NCBI GenBank assembly: GCA_012728835.1
Contig: JAAYEJ010000072.1
Coordinates: forward strand, 1-36,957
Length of the DNA stretch: 36,957 nucleotides
Direction of reading: 5' to 3'
Origin: Candidatus Brocadiaceae bacterium
Lineage (GTDB): Bacteria; Planctomycetota; Brocadiia; SM23-32
The first letter of the stretch is position 1, and each line of letters begins with the position of its first letter. The position numbers were made by a program, and so were the translations under genes. A model generated the notes under the pieces. It searched no databases. It was not told the DNA's origin and saw only the letters and a list, made by a program, of their open reading frames with translations. Shown here piece after piece: positions 20,832-32,540 of this stretch.

Positions 20832-22286
20832 ATGAGCCAGAGACCCTACGTGCTGAGTCAGGTGGCGCCGTGCGTGCATGAGATCGCGCCGTTCGGCGGG
20901 ATGAACGTGCCCGTGCGCATCTACGCCGACGCGAACCTGCTGGAGTCCATCGAGCGCGACAATGCGGTCGAACAGGCGGTCAACGTCGCGCACATGCCGG
21001 GCATCGTGGGCGCCTCTCTGGCCATGCCGGACGCCCACTGGGGCTACGGATTCCCCATCGGCGGCGTGGCCGCCTTCGACGAGGAGCAGGGCGGGGTCGT
21101 CTCGCCCGGCGGCATCGGGTTCGACATCAACTGCGGCGTGCGGCTGGCGCGCACCGGGCTGACCGAATCCGAGGTGCGCCCGCGGATCCACGATCTCATC
21201 GACGGGTTGTTCCGCGACATCCCCTGCGGCGTCGGCGCGTCGAAGGCCATCCGGACGCTCACCGTTCCGGACCTGCGCCGCGTCTGCGTGGACGGGGCGG
21301 CGTGGGCGGTGGAGAACGGGTTCGGACGGCCGGAGGACCTGGTGCGGACCGAGGCGGGCGGCGCGATCGAGGGCGCCGACCCGGACGCCGTCAGCCCCAG
21401 GGCCATGCAGCGCGGCGCCGCCCAGATGGGCACGCTGGGCAGCGGCAACCACTTCGTGGAGATCGACCGCGTCGTCGAGGTGTTCGACGCGCCGGCGGCC
21501 GAGGCGTTCGGCGTGGCGCCGGGCCTGGTGGTCGTGCAGATCCACTGCGGCTCGCGCGGGTTCGGGCACCAGGTCTGCACGGACTACCTGCAGACGATGC
21601 AGGCGGCGACGCGCAGGTACGGCATCCGGGTGTCGGACCGGCAGCTCGCGTGCGCGCCGCTCGGTTCGGCCGAAGCCGTGCGCTACCTGGGCGCCATGGC
21701 CGGCGCGGCCAACTACGCATGGGCCAATCGGCAGACGATCTTCGCGCTCGTCGGCCGCGTGTTCGAGAAGGTCTTCGGTGCAGACCGCGACGCGCTGGGG
21801 CTGCGGCAGGTCTACGACGTGTGTCACAACATCGCCAAATGGGAGGTGCACGACGTCGACGGCGAGCGGCGGCGGCTCTGCGTGCACCGCAAGGGGGCGA
21901 CACGCGCCTTCCCGGCCGCCCATCCGGAGACCCCGGCGCCGTACCGCGCCGTGGGCCATCCCGTGCTGATCCCCGGCGACATGGGAACGGCCAGCTACCT
22001 GCTGGTGGGCACCGACCGCGCGATGCGCGAGACGTGGGGCAGCACCTGCCACGGTGCCGGCCGTGCAATGAGCCGCAAGGGCGCGATCCGCCGGGCGGCC
22101 GGGCGCAGCATCAAGAAGGAACTGGCGGCGCGCGGCATCCTGGTGCGGCATGAGGGGCGCGACACGCTCGCCGAAGAGATGCCCGACGCCTACAAGGACG
22201 TCGACGCCGTCGTGCAGGTGATGCAGGAGGCCGGCATCACGCGCAAGGTGGCGCGCATGGAGCCGATCGGCGTCATCAAGGGGTAG
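20832..22286 (+). CDS. rtcB: RNA-splicing ligase RtcB
   Basis: RtcB joins RNA ends with 2',3'-cyclic phosphate (or 3'-phosphate) and 5'-hydroxyl groups through GTP-dependent histidine guanylylation. The 484-residue protein keeps every catalytic position of the Pyrococcus enzyme with an offset of three or four: D98 and C101 (GFDINCGV), H207 (GSGNHFVE), H238 (HCGSRGFG), H332 (CHNIAKWE) and H407 (CHGAGRAMSR), the guanylylated residue. The ATG at 20832 has AAGGGG upstream. It is cotranscribed with archease, the usual pairing in RNA repair or tRNA splicing modules. No RtcA or sigma-54 activator RtcR is adjacent, so regulation differs from the E. coli rtc operon. Confidence 0.97.
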   Translation: MSQRPYVLSQVAPCVHEIAPFGGMNVPVRIYADANLLESIERDNAVEQAVNVAHMPGIVGASLAMPDAHWGYGFPIGGVAAFDEEQGGVVSPGGIGFDINCGVRLARTGLTESEVRPRIHDLIDGLFRDIPCGVGASKAIRTLTVPDLRRVCVDGAAWAVENGFGRPEDLVRTEAGGAIEGADPDAVSPRAMQRGAAQMGTLGSGNHFVEIDRVVEVFDAPAAEAFGVAPGLVVVQIHCGSRGFGHQVCTDYLQTMQAATRRYGIRVSDRQLACAPLGSAEAVRYLGAMAGAANYAWANRQTIFALVGRVFEKVFGADRDALGLRQVYDVCHNIAKWEVHDVDGERRRLCVHRKGATRAFPAAHPETPAPYRAVGHPVLIPGDMGTASYLLVGTDRAMRETWGSTCHGAGRAMSRKGAIRRAAGRSIKKELAARGILVRHEGRDTLAEEMPDAYKDVDAVVQVMQEAGITRKVARMEPIGVIKG

Positions 22287-28271: not shown

Positions 28272-29960
28272 TTGCTGAACGACCTGCAGATTGCCCAGAG
28301 GGCGAAGCTGCGCAGGATCGAGGATGTCGCGGCCGATGCGGGCATCCTGCGCGATGAACTGGAACTCCACGGCGACCACAAGGCGAAGGTCAAGCTCAGC
28401 ATCCTGGAGCGCCTGGCCGACCGTCCGGACGGTCGCTACATCGACGTGACGGCCATCACGCCCACGCCGCTCGGAGAGGGCAAGACCGTCACCACCATCG
28501 GCGTCACCCAGGCGCTCTGCGCCATCGGCCGGCGTGCGTGGGTCTGCATCCGGCAGCCCTCGCTCGGGCCCGTCTTCGGCGTCAAGGGCGGCGCGGCCGG
28601 GGGCGGCCACAGCCAGATCGTGCCGATGGAGGACATCAACCTGCACCTGACCGGCGACGTCCACGCCGTCAGCATCGCCCACAACCTGGCCGCCGCCTTC
28701 CTGGACAACTCGCTCAAGCGCAGGAACCGCCTCCGGATCGATCCGTCCGACATCTGCTGGAACCGCGTCGTCGACCTCAACGACCGCTGGGCGCTCGAGC
28801 AGGTCGTCGTCGGGCTCGGCGAAGGCTTCGTGCGCAGGACGGGTTTCGACATCAGCGTGGCCAGCGAACTGATGGCCTGCCTGGGCCTGTCCCGGAGCCT
28901 GAAGGACCTGCGCGAGCGCGTCGGCCGGTGCGTCGTCGGCTATACCTACGACGGCGAGGCGGTCACGTGCGAGGACCTCAAGTGCGCCGGCGCGATGACC
29001 GTGCTCCTGCGCGACGCCCTCAAGCCGAACCTCATGCAGACGCTCGAGGGAGGCCCCGCCTTCGTCCACACGGGCCCCTTCGCCAACATCGCCCACGGCA
29101 ACAGCAGCATCCTGGCGGACATGATTGCGCTGAAGCTGTCCGACTACGTCGTCACGGAGAGCGGCTTTGGGGCCGACATCGGGATGGAGAAGTTCTTCGA
29201 CATCAAGTGCCGCGTCGGCGGCTTCACGCCGAACGCCGTCCTGCTGGTGGCCACCGTGCGCGCACTCAAGATGCACAGCGGCAGCTTCCGCGTCGTGCCC
29301 GGCAAGCGCCTGCCCGACGAACTGACGCATGAGGACCCCGACGCGGTCGCACGGGGCTGCGCCAACCTGGAGAAGCACATCGAGAACGTGGCCCTCTTCG
29401 GCGTCCCGTCGGTCGTCTGCATCAACCGGTTCACGGACGACACGGAGTCGGAGATCGAGGCCGTGCGGGAGCGCGCCCTGGCCGCCGGCGCCGAACGCGT
29501 GGTCACCAGCGAGGTGTGGGCCCGGGGCGGGCGGGGCGGCATCGAGGTGGCCGAGGCGCTCCAGGATGCCTGCGAGAAGCCGAGCCGCTTCCGGTTCCTG
29601 TACGACCAGGACGCCTCCATCCGCGCCAAGATCGAGGCGATCGCCACGAAGGTCTACGGGGCCGACGGCGTGGACTACGCCCCGGCCGCGCGGCGCAAGA
29701 TCAAGCAGTTCACGGAGTTGGGATACGGTCGCCTGCCCGTCTGCATGGCCAAGACGCACCTGTCCCTCTCGCACGACCCCGCGCTGAAGGGCCGCCCGAC
29801 CGGCTGGCGCCTGCCCGTGCGCGACGTGCGCCCGTCGCTGGGCGCCGGGTTCCTCTATCCGCTCTGCGGGGACATGCGCACGATCCCCGGCCTCCCGACG
29901 AGGCCGGCAGGCGAGGATGTGGACATCGACGAGGAGGGCCGCATCGTCGGGCTGTTCTGA
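28272..29960 (+). CDS. fhs: Formate-tetrahydrofolate ligase
   Basis: Fhs makes 10-formyl-tetrahydrofolate from formate, THF and ATP, feeding one-carbon units into purines or, in acetogens, the Wood-Ljungdahl methyl branch. The 562-residue protein has the P-loop TPTPLGEGKTVTT (near residue 60), QPSLGPVFGVKGGAAGGG, NLTGDVHA-like and THTGPFANIAHGNSS-like blocks, all typical. The start is a TTG at 28272 with GGAGGGAGG nine bases upstream; no in-frame ATG lies close enough to the conserved N-terminus. No folD or other folate gene is next to it. It converges with aroC over 65 bases, in which I see only a small CCGGT/ACCGG hairpin. Confidence 0.96.
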   Translation: MLNDLQIAQRAKLRRIEDVAADAGILRDELELHGDHKAKVKLSILERLADRPDGRYIDVTAITPTPLGEGKTVTTIGVTQALCAIGRRAWVCIRQPSLGPVFGVKGGAAGGGHSQIVPMEDINLHLTGDVHAVSIAHNLAAAFLDNSLKRRNRLRIDPSDICWNRVVDLNDRWALEQVVVGLGEGFVRRTGFDISVASELMACLGLSRSLKDLRERVGRCVVGYTYDGEAVTCEDLKCAGAMTVLLRDALKPNLMQTLEGGPAFVHTGPFANIAHGNSSILADMIALKLSDYVVTESGFGADIGMEKFFDIKCRVGGFTPNAVLLVATVRALKMHSGSFRVVPGKRLPDELTHEDPDAVARGCANLEKHIENVALFGVPSVVCINRFTDDTESEIEAVRERALAAGAERVVTSEVWARGGRGGIEVAEALQDACEKPSRFRFLYDQDASIRAKIEAIATKVYGADGVDYAPAARRKIKQFTELGYGRLPVCMAKTHLSLSHDPALKGRPTGWRLPVRDVRPSLGAGFLYPLCGDMRTIPGLPTRPAGEDVDIDEEGRIVGLF

Positions 29961-30025: not shown

Positions 30026-31348
30026 TCACTCGCCGCCCGCCAGGGCACGATAGCCCAGATGCATGGCCAGTTGGTCGACCAGGATCATCGCCGTGAATGC
30101 CTCGGCCACGGGCCAGACGCGGGCGACGATCGTCGGATCGCGGCGCGTGACCGCCGCCAGCGTGGCGTTCTGGCGCGTCACCTTGTCGATGGTCTGCTGC
30201 GGCCTGGCGATCGTGGGCGTCGGCTTGACGGCAATCCGGGCGACGACAGGCTGGCCGGTTGTCAGGCCGCCGGTGATCCCGCCGGCGTGGTTGCTCGCGA
30301 ACTGCACCTTCCCGTCGCGGGCGCTCATCTGGTCATTGCAGGCGGATCCGGTCATGTCCTTCACCGCGACGCCGGCCCCGACCTCCACGGCCTTGACCGC
30401 TCCGATCCCCAGCATGCGGCCCAGCTCGGCGTCCAGCTTCTCAAACACGGGCTCGCCCAGGCCGCCGGGCACGCCCGTGGCGACCACCTCGACCAGGCCG
30501 CCGCTCGAATCGCCGCCGTCGCGGATCTCGATGATCCGGCGGGCCATCGCATCGGCCGTCTCGACGTCCGGGCAGTTCATCGTCGTGTGCACGCCGAAGC
30601 GTTCGCGCACCGCCGCCTCGTCGAACTTCATCCGCTCGCTGAGTTCCGGCACCTGCTTCTCGACCTCGGCCAGAACGGCCATCTTCTCCAGGAAACGCAT
30701 GTCCGGTGTGATGCGCCCATCGCCGTAAACCGCCTGGTAGACCGGATCGCACGCCCGCCGCATCGCCTTGTAGGCGTCGACCTGCCGGTGGATGAGTTCC
30801 AGCGGCATCTCCGGCGCCCGGACGCCGGCGGCCTCCTTCACGTAGGCGCTGATGCGGATCCCGTGGCGGGCCAGCACCTGCTTGGCGACCGCCCCGGCAG
30901 CCACGATCGTGGCGGTGTAGCGGCCGCTGAACAGACCCGCGCCGATCGCGTCGTCGCATTCGCCGTACTTCAGGTACGACGCATACGACGCGTGCCCGGG
31001 CCGCGGCGTGCGGTTGGTGGACCGGTACTGCTCGATGTGCTCGAAGTGGCGGTCCAGATTCGGGATCAGGATCACCAGCGGGGTGCCGTTGGTCCGCCCC
31101 TTGTTGGAGACGCCGGCCATCGTGTCGGCGGCGTTCACCCCGCTGTAGATCACGGGCACGTCCGGCTCCCGGCGGGGCGAGGCCAGTTCGCCCTGGCCGG
31201 GCTTGCGCAGGAGCAGGTCCGCGTAGATGTCCTCCTCCCGCAGCAGAAGGCCCGTGGGGACCCCCTGGATGTGCGTGCTCAGGCCTTCCTGGTAGGACCC
31301 GCCCGCGACCGTGACACGGAACAGGCGTCCGTAGGAACATCCCAGCAT
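30026..31348 (-). CDS. aroC: Chorismate synthase family protein, divergent variant
   Basis: AroC converts EPSP to chorismate with reduced FMN, the last shikimate step. Much of the 440-residue protein is typical: GVPTGLLL, YRSTNRTPRPGHASY (H119, matching the second catalytic His), VAAGAVAKQVL and QFASNHAGGITGGLTTGQP. Three usually conserved sites differ. The first catalytic His (GESHG, His17 in Neurospora) is replaced by Y19 in GGSYQE. The RSSARET-like FMN segment reads LFSGRYTA. GRHDP reads TRRDP. About 60-80 extra residues sit around 175-275, making it longer than the usual 350-390. The ATG at 31348 has AAGGAG seven bases upstream. It follows the permease gene by 46 bases. It is either a lineage-specific AroC or a relative with another role. 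Confidence 0.85.
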   Translation of the reverse strand: MLGCSYGRLFRVTVAGGSYQEGLSTHIQGVPTGLLLREEDIYADLLLRKPGQGELASPRREPDVPVIYSGVNAADTMAGVSNKGRTNGTPLVILIPNLDRHFEHIEQYRSTNRTPRPGHASYASYLKYGECDDAIGAGLFSGRYTATIVAAGAVAKQVLARHGIRISAYVKEAAGVRAPEMPLELIHRQVDAYKAMRRACDPVYQAVYGDGRITPDMRFLEKMAVLAEVEKQVPELSERMKFDEAAVRERFGVHTTMNCPDVETADAMARRIIEIRDGGDSSGGLVEVVATGVPGGLGEPVFEKLDAELGRMLGIGAVKAVEVGAGVAVKDMTGSACNDQMSARDGKVQFASNHAGGITGGLTTGQPVVARIAVKPTPTIARPQQTIDKVTRQNATLAAVTRRDPTIVARVWPVAEAFTAMILVDQLAMHLGYRALAGGE

Positions 31349-31394: not shown

Positions 31395-32480
31395 CTATGT
31401 CAGCATCGCCTCGAACAGCCAGAGCCCCAGCGCCCCGGCAAGAACCGTGGGCAACCAGCCCGCCAGCGCCGTGTTGAGGCTGCCCGTGTAGCCCATGCTG
31501 CTGAACACGAACGTCAGGGTATACAGCCCGGCGGCCACGGCGATGCTCAGAATCGCGCCGAGGAAGCGGCTGTTGACCGACCGCTCGAACCCTACCATGC
31601 AGGGCAGCCCGATCAGCAGCAGGATGAACGGTGTGAAGACCCCGGCCAGCCGGCCGTGGAGCGCCACGCGGAAATACGGCACCGTCGGATACTCCCGCGC
31701 CGCCCTGCGCAGGTCAGACACGGTCTGCGTCGGCGGCCCTGCCTTGCCCTCCTGCGAAGCGGCCAGCAGTTCCGCCCGCCCGATGTCCGTGGGCAGAACG
31801 ACCTCCGGCAGCAGGTCCGACCCGATCGCCCGGCCCGTTGCCGGATCGAACTCATCGATCGCCACCGCCTGCAGGCGGACGCTGCCGGGCGTCCAATGCG
31901 CCGACGCTGCCTGAAGCACACGCACGAGCCGGCCGCCGGGCTCCAGTTCCACCACCGCGACGTCGCGGGCTGCCGCGCGCCGGAAGTCATACTCGCGCAG
32001 CCGGTACTTGCGTGCGTACGCCGTGTCGTTCAGAAGCAGGTTCGCGGCCGTCTCGCCCTCCAGAACCCGCCCCTGAATCTGCTGCTCCTGCGCCATCCGG
32101 GGCGCAACCCCCTCGCGCACGGCGAACACGCCCGCGCTGACCAGCGCCGTCCACACGAAGATGGGCGCCACCACCCGATGCACGCTCGTGCCGCACGCCT
32201 TGAGCGCCATCAACTCGCCCGACCGCGCCATGGCCACCAGCAGCATCCCCGCCGCCAGCAGGATCACGCCCGGCGCCAGCTCGACCAGGAACAGGGGGAC
32301 AACGTGGGAGTAGTACCTCACCAGTGCGCGTCCCCCGCCCGCCGCGTCGCCGTCCGGCAACTCGTCCAGCCGCTTCAGCACGTCGAAGCTGACGTACAGC
32401 AACGTGATCACCAGCGCGGTCCCGAGAGCCCGCGTGAGGAATGCGACGCTGACGTACCGGTCGATCTTCTTGAACAGCAT
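31395..32480 (-). CDS. LptF/LptG (YjgP/YjgQ) family permease
   Basis: LptF and LptG are the inner-membrane permeases that, with the LptB ATPase, extract lipopolysaccharide for transport to the outer membrane. The 361-residue protein has the family layout: N-terminal LFKKIDRYVSVAFLTRALG and a first helix, two more helices (about 55-80 and 100-120) with SGELMALKACG between them, a periplasmic beta-jellyroll region (about 125-260), and three C-terminal helices (about 265-361). The ATG at 32480 is chosen because it matches the usual start. A GTG at 32525 has AAGGAG only three bases upstream and is the alternative. LptF and LptG cannot be told apart here. A promoter is at 32541-32569. Confidence 0.85.
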   Translation of the reverse strand: MLFKKIDRYVSVAFLTRALGTALVITLLYVSFDVLKRLDELPDGDAAGGGRALVRYYSHVVPLFLVELAPGVILLAAGMLLVAMARSGELMALKACGTSVHRVVAPIFVWTALVSAGVFAVREGVAPRMAQEQQIQGRVLEGETAANLLLNDTAYARKYRLREYDFRRAAARDVAVVELEPGGRLVRVLQAASAHWTPGSVRLQAVAIDEFDPATGRAIGSDLLPEVVLPTDIGRAELLAASQEGKAGPPTQTVSDLRRAAREYPTVPYFRVALHGRLAGVFTPFILLLIGLPCMVGFERSVNSRFLGAILSIAVAAGLYTLTFVFSSMGYTGSLNTALAGWLPTVLAGALGLWLFEAMLT

Positions 32481-32540
32481 AGGCGGAATCCGTTGCGGCG
32501 GCCCCGCGAGCCGGCAGAAGCACACGATCTCCTTGCCGGA

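What the first reader, a model, noticed from the sequence alone, without database searches (positions are those of the whole stretch)
30026..31348. Chorismate synthase homologue without the first catalytic histidine and with an internal insertion
Directly visible: the near-invariant N-terminal GESHG motif reads GGSYQE (Y19 in place of the catalytic His), the RSSARET-type flavin segment reads LFSGRYTA, and the C-terminal GRHDP reads TRRDP. About 60-80 extra residues lie around 175-275. H119 and SNHAGG are kept. Chorismate synthases characterised in Neurospora and E. coli use both histidines as acid groups. Either this lineage has a compensating mechanism, possibly using the insertion, or the protein has changed function.
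Basis: partly seen in the sequence, partly recalled or inferred. Interest (0 to 1): 0.6.

Follow-up and report, generated by a model that had tools for sequence, protein, structure and literature searches.

The report
Chorismate synthase lacking its invariant histidine
This gene belongs to an apparently undescribed branch of chorismate synthase, the enzyme that finishes the common precursor of the aromatic amino acids; it is scattered over several bacterial phyla and is often the only copy present, yet it has lost a catalytic histidine thought to be universal, so one textbook proton-transfer step must work differently in it.

Summary
Confirmed. The 440-aa ORF at 30026-31348(-) is an AroC homologue (TIGR00033 and PF01264 above cut-off; all 28 significant fold matches are chorismate synthases). 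GESHG reads GGSYQ: His17 (Neurospora numbering) is Tyr19. It is not a private mutation: 69 distinct relatives from Planctomycetota, Hydrogenedentota, Spirochaetota, Bacteroidota, Armatimonadota, Aminicenantota and others all share Tyr19, Gln20, Ser121 and Tyr144, three insertions (the largest helical, ~66 residues), and form one clade on a long stem. All keep the other mechanistic residues (Ser18, His119, Ser141, Asp404) and four EPSP-binding arginines. Function is most likely unchanged: the variant is the only AroC in its own genome (97% complete) and in 29 of 52 variant-bearing genomes, including two one-contig chromosomes. It lies directly downstream of aroA in about half of the loci, ends an aroB-aroD-aroE-aroA-variant gene cluster in an Aminicenantes genome, and in one genus stands where sister species carry a canonical shikimate kinase-AroC fusion. 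Which group replaces the acid (Tyr19, or variant-only His101, His104, Tyr144, Arg403) is inferred, not shown. 22 genomes keep both forms. New variant of a known kind.

The parts
30026..31348 (-). ORF of the His17-less chorismate synthase variant, 440 aa
   Evidence: PF01264 2.6e-95; TIGR00033 318.7 bits against cut-off 212.2; only PF01264 match in the genome
31286..31303 (-). GGSYQE (residues 16-21) in place of GESHG; Tyr19 codon at 31292-31294, Ser18 kept
   Evidence: Tyr 69/69 variants, His 52/52 canonical
31106..31135 (-). Short insertion, residues about 72-81 (Asn72 and Ala74 invariant)
   Evidence: gap in 51-52 of 52 canonical rows
31037..31051 (-). RHFEH, residues 100-104; Arg100, His101, Phe102 and His104 are invariant and variant-specific, candidate replacement acids
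   Evidence: 100-102 absent from all 52 canonical rows
30992..30994 (-). His119, counterpart of N. crassa His106 (flavin N1 protonation), kept
   Evidence: role from PMC3509576
30914..30934 (-). LFSGRYT (residues 139-145) in place of RSSARET; Ser141 and Arg143 kept, Tyr144 variant-specific
30596..30802 (-). Helical insertion, residues 183-251 (four helices; Asp201, Arg218, Lys222, Glu230 invariant)
   Evidence: AlphaFold2 model, helices 183-200, 202-209, 219-238, 244-251; absent from canonical rows; no Pfam match on its own
30131..30148 (-). TRRDPT (residues 401-406) in place of GRHDPC; Arg402 and Asp404 (N. crassa Asp367) kept

Best explanation
The gene encodes a working chorismate synthase (EPSP to chorismate plus phosphate, with reduced FMN) of a distinct, horizontally spread subfamily. 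Shown by sequence: the flavin-protonating His (His119), the Asp that primes flavin N5 (Asp404), both relay serines (Ser18, Ser141) and four EPSP-binding arginines (Arg48, 116, 143, 402) are invariant, while the leaving-phosphate His17 is always Tyr. Inferred: phosphate departure is assisted by Tyr19, donating a hydrogen bond or proton from the same place (my first guess, about 0.4), or by variant-only invariant residues (His101/His104 about 0.25; Tyr144, Arg403 less). Inferred: the helical insertion is structural (lid or subunit contact), and the steps at flavin N1 and N5 run as in known enzymes.
For: Sole AroC of the own genome, which has aroA, aroB, a TrpE-type chorismate-using enzyme and prephenate dehydratase. 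Sole AroC in 29 of 52 variant-bearing genomes, two of them single-contig chromosomes. aroA directly upstream in 34 of 65 scored loci. Five-gene cluster aroB-aroD-aroE-aroA-variant in G144, where the variant is the only AroC. aroA-variant-aroK in L140. Replacement of a canonical shikimate kinase-AroC fusion within one genus. Chorismate synthase fold, profile scores above cut-off, four of five mechanistic residues invariant, purifying selection.
Against: No biochemical or genetic test exists. 22 genomes keep a canonical AroC as well, as a paralogue with another role might. A shikimate kinase was not detected in the own genome, although that search also missed one control genome. G137 lacks recognisable dehydroquinate synthase of either type and PF00800.
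Confidence: 0.84

Rival explanations
1. A neofunctionalised AroC paralogue that binds an EPSP-like ligand and flavin but does something other than make chorismate.
For: The leaving-group His and several neighbouring residues are changed as a block; 22 genomes have both forms; long stem branch in the tree.
Against: 29 genomes have only the variant together with aroA and, in most of those tested, chorismate-using enzymes; it lies in aro gene clusters; it replaces a canonical gene in one genus; the other mechanistic residues are invariant.
Confidence: 0.08
2. The helical insertion is the functional novelty: it supplies NAD(P)H-dependent reduction of FMN or docks AroA or a reductase, making the enzyme bifunctional or part of a complex, and the active-site changes follow from that.
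For: Insertion is confidently helical with invariant charged residues; frequent aroA adjacency.
Against: About 66 residues is small for a reductase and matches no Pfam family. Compatible with the main explanation, but not testable here; the NAD(P)H site of bifunctional enzymes could not be predicted from sequence or structure (PMC2386126).
Confidence: 0.12
3. The gene is decayed or redundant, and a canonical aroC lies in the missing few percent of the assembly.
For: The own genome is 97% complete in 82 contigs.
Against: The same pattern holds in 28 other genomes including two one-contig chromosomes; dN/dS about 0.15 and 123 invariant positions across phyla.
Confidence: 0.03

Closest known systems
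Chorismate synthase AroC (EC 4.2.3.5; PF01264, TIGR00033; solved structures 1QXO, 7RCA, 4LJ2)
   Same: Fold, whole-length profile match, FMN/EPSP residues His119, Asp404, Ser18, Ser141, Arg48, Arg116, Arg143, Arg402; shikimate-pathway gene context
   Different: Tyr for the leaving-group His; Gln20, Ser121, Tyr144, Arg403, Thr406 in place of conserved residues; three insertions totalling 79 residues; separate clade on a long stem; 22-30% identity to solved structures
Shikimate kinase-AroC fusion of Hydrogenedentota and Planctomycetota (L162:7813-9429, L164:6602-8191)
   Same: Takes the same place in the genome in genus g129; same inferred role
   Different: Canonical GESHG active site, N-terminal PF01202 domain, no helical insertion
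Second Bacillus-type chorismate synthase, NF009113 (PRK12463)
   Same: Homologous AroC family
   Different: Window protein scores 141 bits against a cut-off of 799, so it is not this paralogue

Membership tests
Chorismate synthase superfamily (PF01264 / TIGR00033) | Whole-length profile match above the curated cut-off | tested here: met
   PF01264 319 bits against 27, positions 1-326 of 327; TIGR00033 318.7 against 212.2; NF003793 321.7 against 321
Chorismate synthase superfamily (PF01264 / TIGR00033) | Chorismate synthase fold | tested here: met
   Model pLDDT 86, pTM 0.91; 28 of 28 significant PDB matches are chorismate synthases
Canonical AroC as characterised in N. crassa and others | N-terminal GESHG with the leaving-group His (N. 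crassa His17) | tested here: not met
   Tyr19 in 69/69 variants; His in 52/52 canonical. M. tuberculosis His11 is described as present across all known species (PMC2386126)
Canonical AroC as characterised in N. crassa and others | Flavin N1 His (His106) and active-site Asp (Asp367) | tested here: met
   His119 and Asp404 invariant
Canonical AroC as characterised in N. crassa and others | Two invariant relay serines and the EPSP-binding arginines | tested here: met
   Ser18, Ser141, Arg48, Arg116, Arg143, Arg402 invariant; arginine roles from PMC11633415, positions mapped through the E. coli sequence
Canonical AroC as characterised in N. crassa and others | Conversion of EPSP to chorismate with reduced FMN | not testable with these tools
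   Supported only indirectly, by genome content and context
Chorismate synthase superfamily (PF01264 / TIGR00033) | Homotetramer | not tested
   No multimer model was made

The most novel reading that the evidence does not exclude
A second natural catalytic solution for chorismate synthase: His17, treated as the universal acid for the leaving phosphate, is dispensable, and another group in a rebuilt site (Tyr19, or variant-only His101/His104/Tyr144/Arg403, with help of the helical insertion) does its job, in an enzyme that has replaced the canonical gene by horizontal transfer in several phyla.
Probability: 0.6. Interest if true: 0.68.

Novelty: new variant of a known kind. Interest (0 to 1): 0.57.

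Why it matters
Chorismate synthase runs a non-redox reaction that needs reduced FMN, its mechanism is still debated, and its two active-site histidines are described as invariant. A large natural subfamily without one of them makes the role of that residue directly testable and offers a differently built active site for inhibitor work. Motif-based checks would wrongly call the protein inactive, or its hosts unable to make aromatic amino acids.

Tried and rejected
A shifted rather than missing His: rejected, flanking Gly16 and Ser18 align in all 69 + 52 sequences. A second aroC in the genome: none. Pseudogene or sequencing error: rejected by 69 concordant relatives and dN/dS 0.15. I first took G039 and G069 as variants because their matches are long; the variant profile gives G039 only 118 bits, so I treat both as canonical proteins with some other insertion (G069 not re-tested). 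The insertion alone matches no Pfam family. Model coordinates were not released to the Python box, so residue distances could not be measured. No shikimate kinase-like frame was found in the fetched own-genome stretches around aroA, aroB, trpE and the prephenate dehydratase gene, nor in the window. No paper on this subfamily was found, but most subscription journals are not held; the original His17 mutagenesis paper was not held, so no loss-of-activity figure is quoted for His17.

Full report
Observation. The ORF at 30026-31348 on the minus strand encodes 440 residues. It matches PF01264 over nearly the whole model (2.6e-95) and the TIGR00033 aroC equivalog model above cut-off (318.7 against 212.2 bits). 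The extra length against E. coli AroC is 79 residues in three places: about 10 at 71-81, 3 at 100-102, and about 66 between 175 and 259. Neighbours in the window are formate-tetrahydrofolate ligase (28272-29960, +) and an LptF/LptG permease (31395-32525, -); no other shikimate gene was identified in the window.

It is a subfamily, not a mutation. One scan of genome contigs gave 67 relatives, 62-82% identical, labelled Planctomycetota, Hydrogenedentota, Spirochaetota, Bacteroidota, Armatimonadota, Aminicenantota, Lentisphaerota and others; nearly all are metagenome-assembled, so some labels may be wrong. In an alignment with 52 canonical AroC proteins, E. coli included, column 19 is Tyr in every variant and His in every canonical protein. 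Seven further members, some more distant, show the same: 69 distinct variant rows, 123 positions invariant among them. The tree makes the variants one clade (SH-aLRT 99, stem 2.24 substitutions per site) (quick method, long branches present). Long stem, shallow crown and patchy distribution suggest horizontal spread. Only 5 of 214 sampled near-complete genomes of the own phylum hold it. In the own taxonomic family G000, G004 and G006 have the variant, whereas G002, G005, G007 and G008 have GESHG proteins.

What is kept and what is changed. In the mechanism reviewed in PMC3509576 one His protonates flavin N1 (20-fold loss on mutation in N. crassa) and Asp367 primes flavin N5 (300-600-fold loss); two invariant serines were assigned to a proton relay (title of Rauch 2008, cited there; that they are Ser16 and Ser127 is from my own knowledge). 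His17 is proposed to protonate the leaving phosphate (PMC2386126; PMC7144000), and other acids, arginine among them, have not been excluded (PMC12697075). In the window protein His119, Asp404, Ser18 and Ser141 are invariant across the clade, as are Arg48, Arg116, Arg143 and Arg402, the counterparts of EPSP-contacting arginines named for the P. brasiliensis enzyme (PMC11633415; mapping through E. coli numbering is mine). Of these five mechanistic residues only His17 is lost. Around it a block of residues has changed together (E. coli to variant): Glu17 to Gly, Gly20 to Gln, Asp108 to Ser121, Arg125 to Phe/Ile/Leu139, Glu130 to Tyr144, His320 to Arg403, Cys323 to Thr406. New invariants are Arg100, His101, Phe102, His104, Asn112 and Arg113, and Asp201, Arg218, Lys222 and Glu230 in the insertion.

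Structure. The AlphaFold2 model (59-sequence alignment) has mean pLDDT 86 and pTM 0.91. The insertion forms helices 183-200, 202-209, 219-238 and 244-251, mostly at block means of 77-96. The stretch 101-140 around the active-site loop is uncertain (block means 54-73). All 28 significant PDB matches are chorismate synthases.

Function. The own genome has a single AroC, with aroA, aroB, a TrpE-type enzyme and prephenate dehydratase. Of 52 distinct variant-bearing genomes, 29 have only the variant (two of them in two copies), 22 also have a canonical AroC and one is unclear (classification by score and match length is mine). Two variant-only genomes are single contigs: G100 (CP070816.1) and G137 (CP070654.1). 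aroA is upstream on the same strand within 1.5 kb in 34 of 65 scored loci, usually within about 130 bases. In G144 (Aminicenantes) the order is aroB, aroD, aroE, aroA, variant, with the first four genes overlapping, and G144 has no other AroC. In L140 a shikimate kinase follows the variant. In genus g129, G254 and G272 carry a canonical shikimate kinase-AroC fusion; in G237 the sequence downstream of the gene is collinear with G272 up to the 3' end, but the gene there is the variant (the upstream side differs). G237 keeps aroA, prephenate dehydratase and a stand-alone shikimate kinase. This natural replacement and the aro cluster are the strongest arguments that the variant does the same job.

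Limits. In the 22 genomes with both forms the roles may differ. Neither shikimate kinase PF01202 nor, over its cut-off, the archaeal type TIGR01920 was found in the own genome and several other variant-only genomes; the PF01202 search also missed the Synechococcus elongatus control, so this is an open lead, not a result. G137 lacks recognisable dehydroquinate synthase of either type and PF00800.

Verdict. Very probably a functional chorismate synthase of a distinct subfamily in which the leaving-group His is replaced. Tyr19 as the new acid or hydrogen-bond donor is my first guess (about 0.4), variant-only His101/His104 next (about 0.25); both are inference. By profile and fold it belongs to the chorismate synthase superfamily; by the His17 criterion it is not a canonical AroC. 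It is therefore filed as a new variant of a known kind.

Noticed in passing
L162:7813-9429, L164:6602-8191; also long AroC frames in L101, L103, L005, L009, L107: Canonical AroC in several Hydrogenedentota and Planctomycetota genomes is fused to an N-terminal shikimate kinase domain (PF01202 + PF01264, 530-590 aa; Pfam-tested for L162 and L164, read by eye for the others).
   Followed up: partly
G000, G004, G009, G220, G163, G100: No shikimate kinase of the PF01202 type, nor of the archaeal type over cut-off, was detected in six variant-only genomes that have aroA; the PF01202 search missed one control genome, so the absence is weak.
   Followed up: partly
G010, G012, G084, G100, G102, G104, G110: Archaeal-type dehydroquinate synthase II (PF01959) is present in bacteria that carry the variant and, all but one without any PF01761 hit and one with a sub-threshold hit, lack the usual aroB.
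   Followed up: partly
G101 (C9, C81), G118 (C1, C19): Two genomes carry two copies of the variant and no canonical AroC.
   Followed up: no
L160:6111-7265: A DNA topoisomerase VI subunit A gene lies upstream of the variant, on the opposite strand, in G237.
   Followed up: no
L047:4341-6044; similar frames in L135 and L145: In Armatimonadota-labelled genomes the order is aroA, variant, then a carbon starvation protein CstA (Pfam-tested in L047, by sequence start in the others).
   Followed up: no
window 20832-22286: An RtcB-type RNA ligase gene (PF01139, 5e-170) lies in the same window.
   Followed up: no
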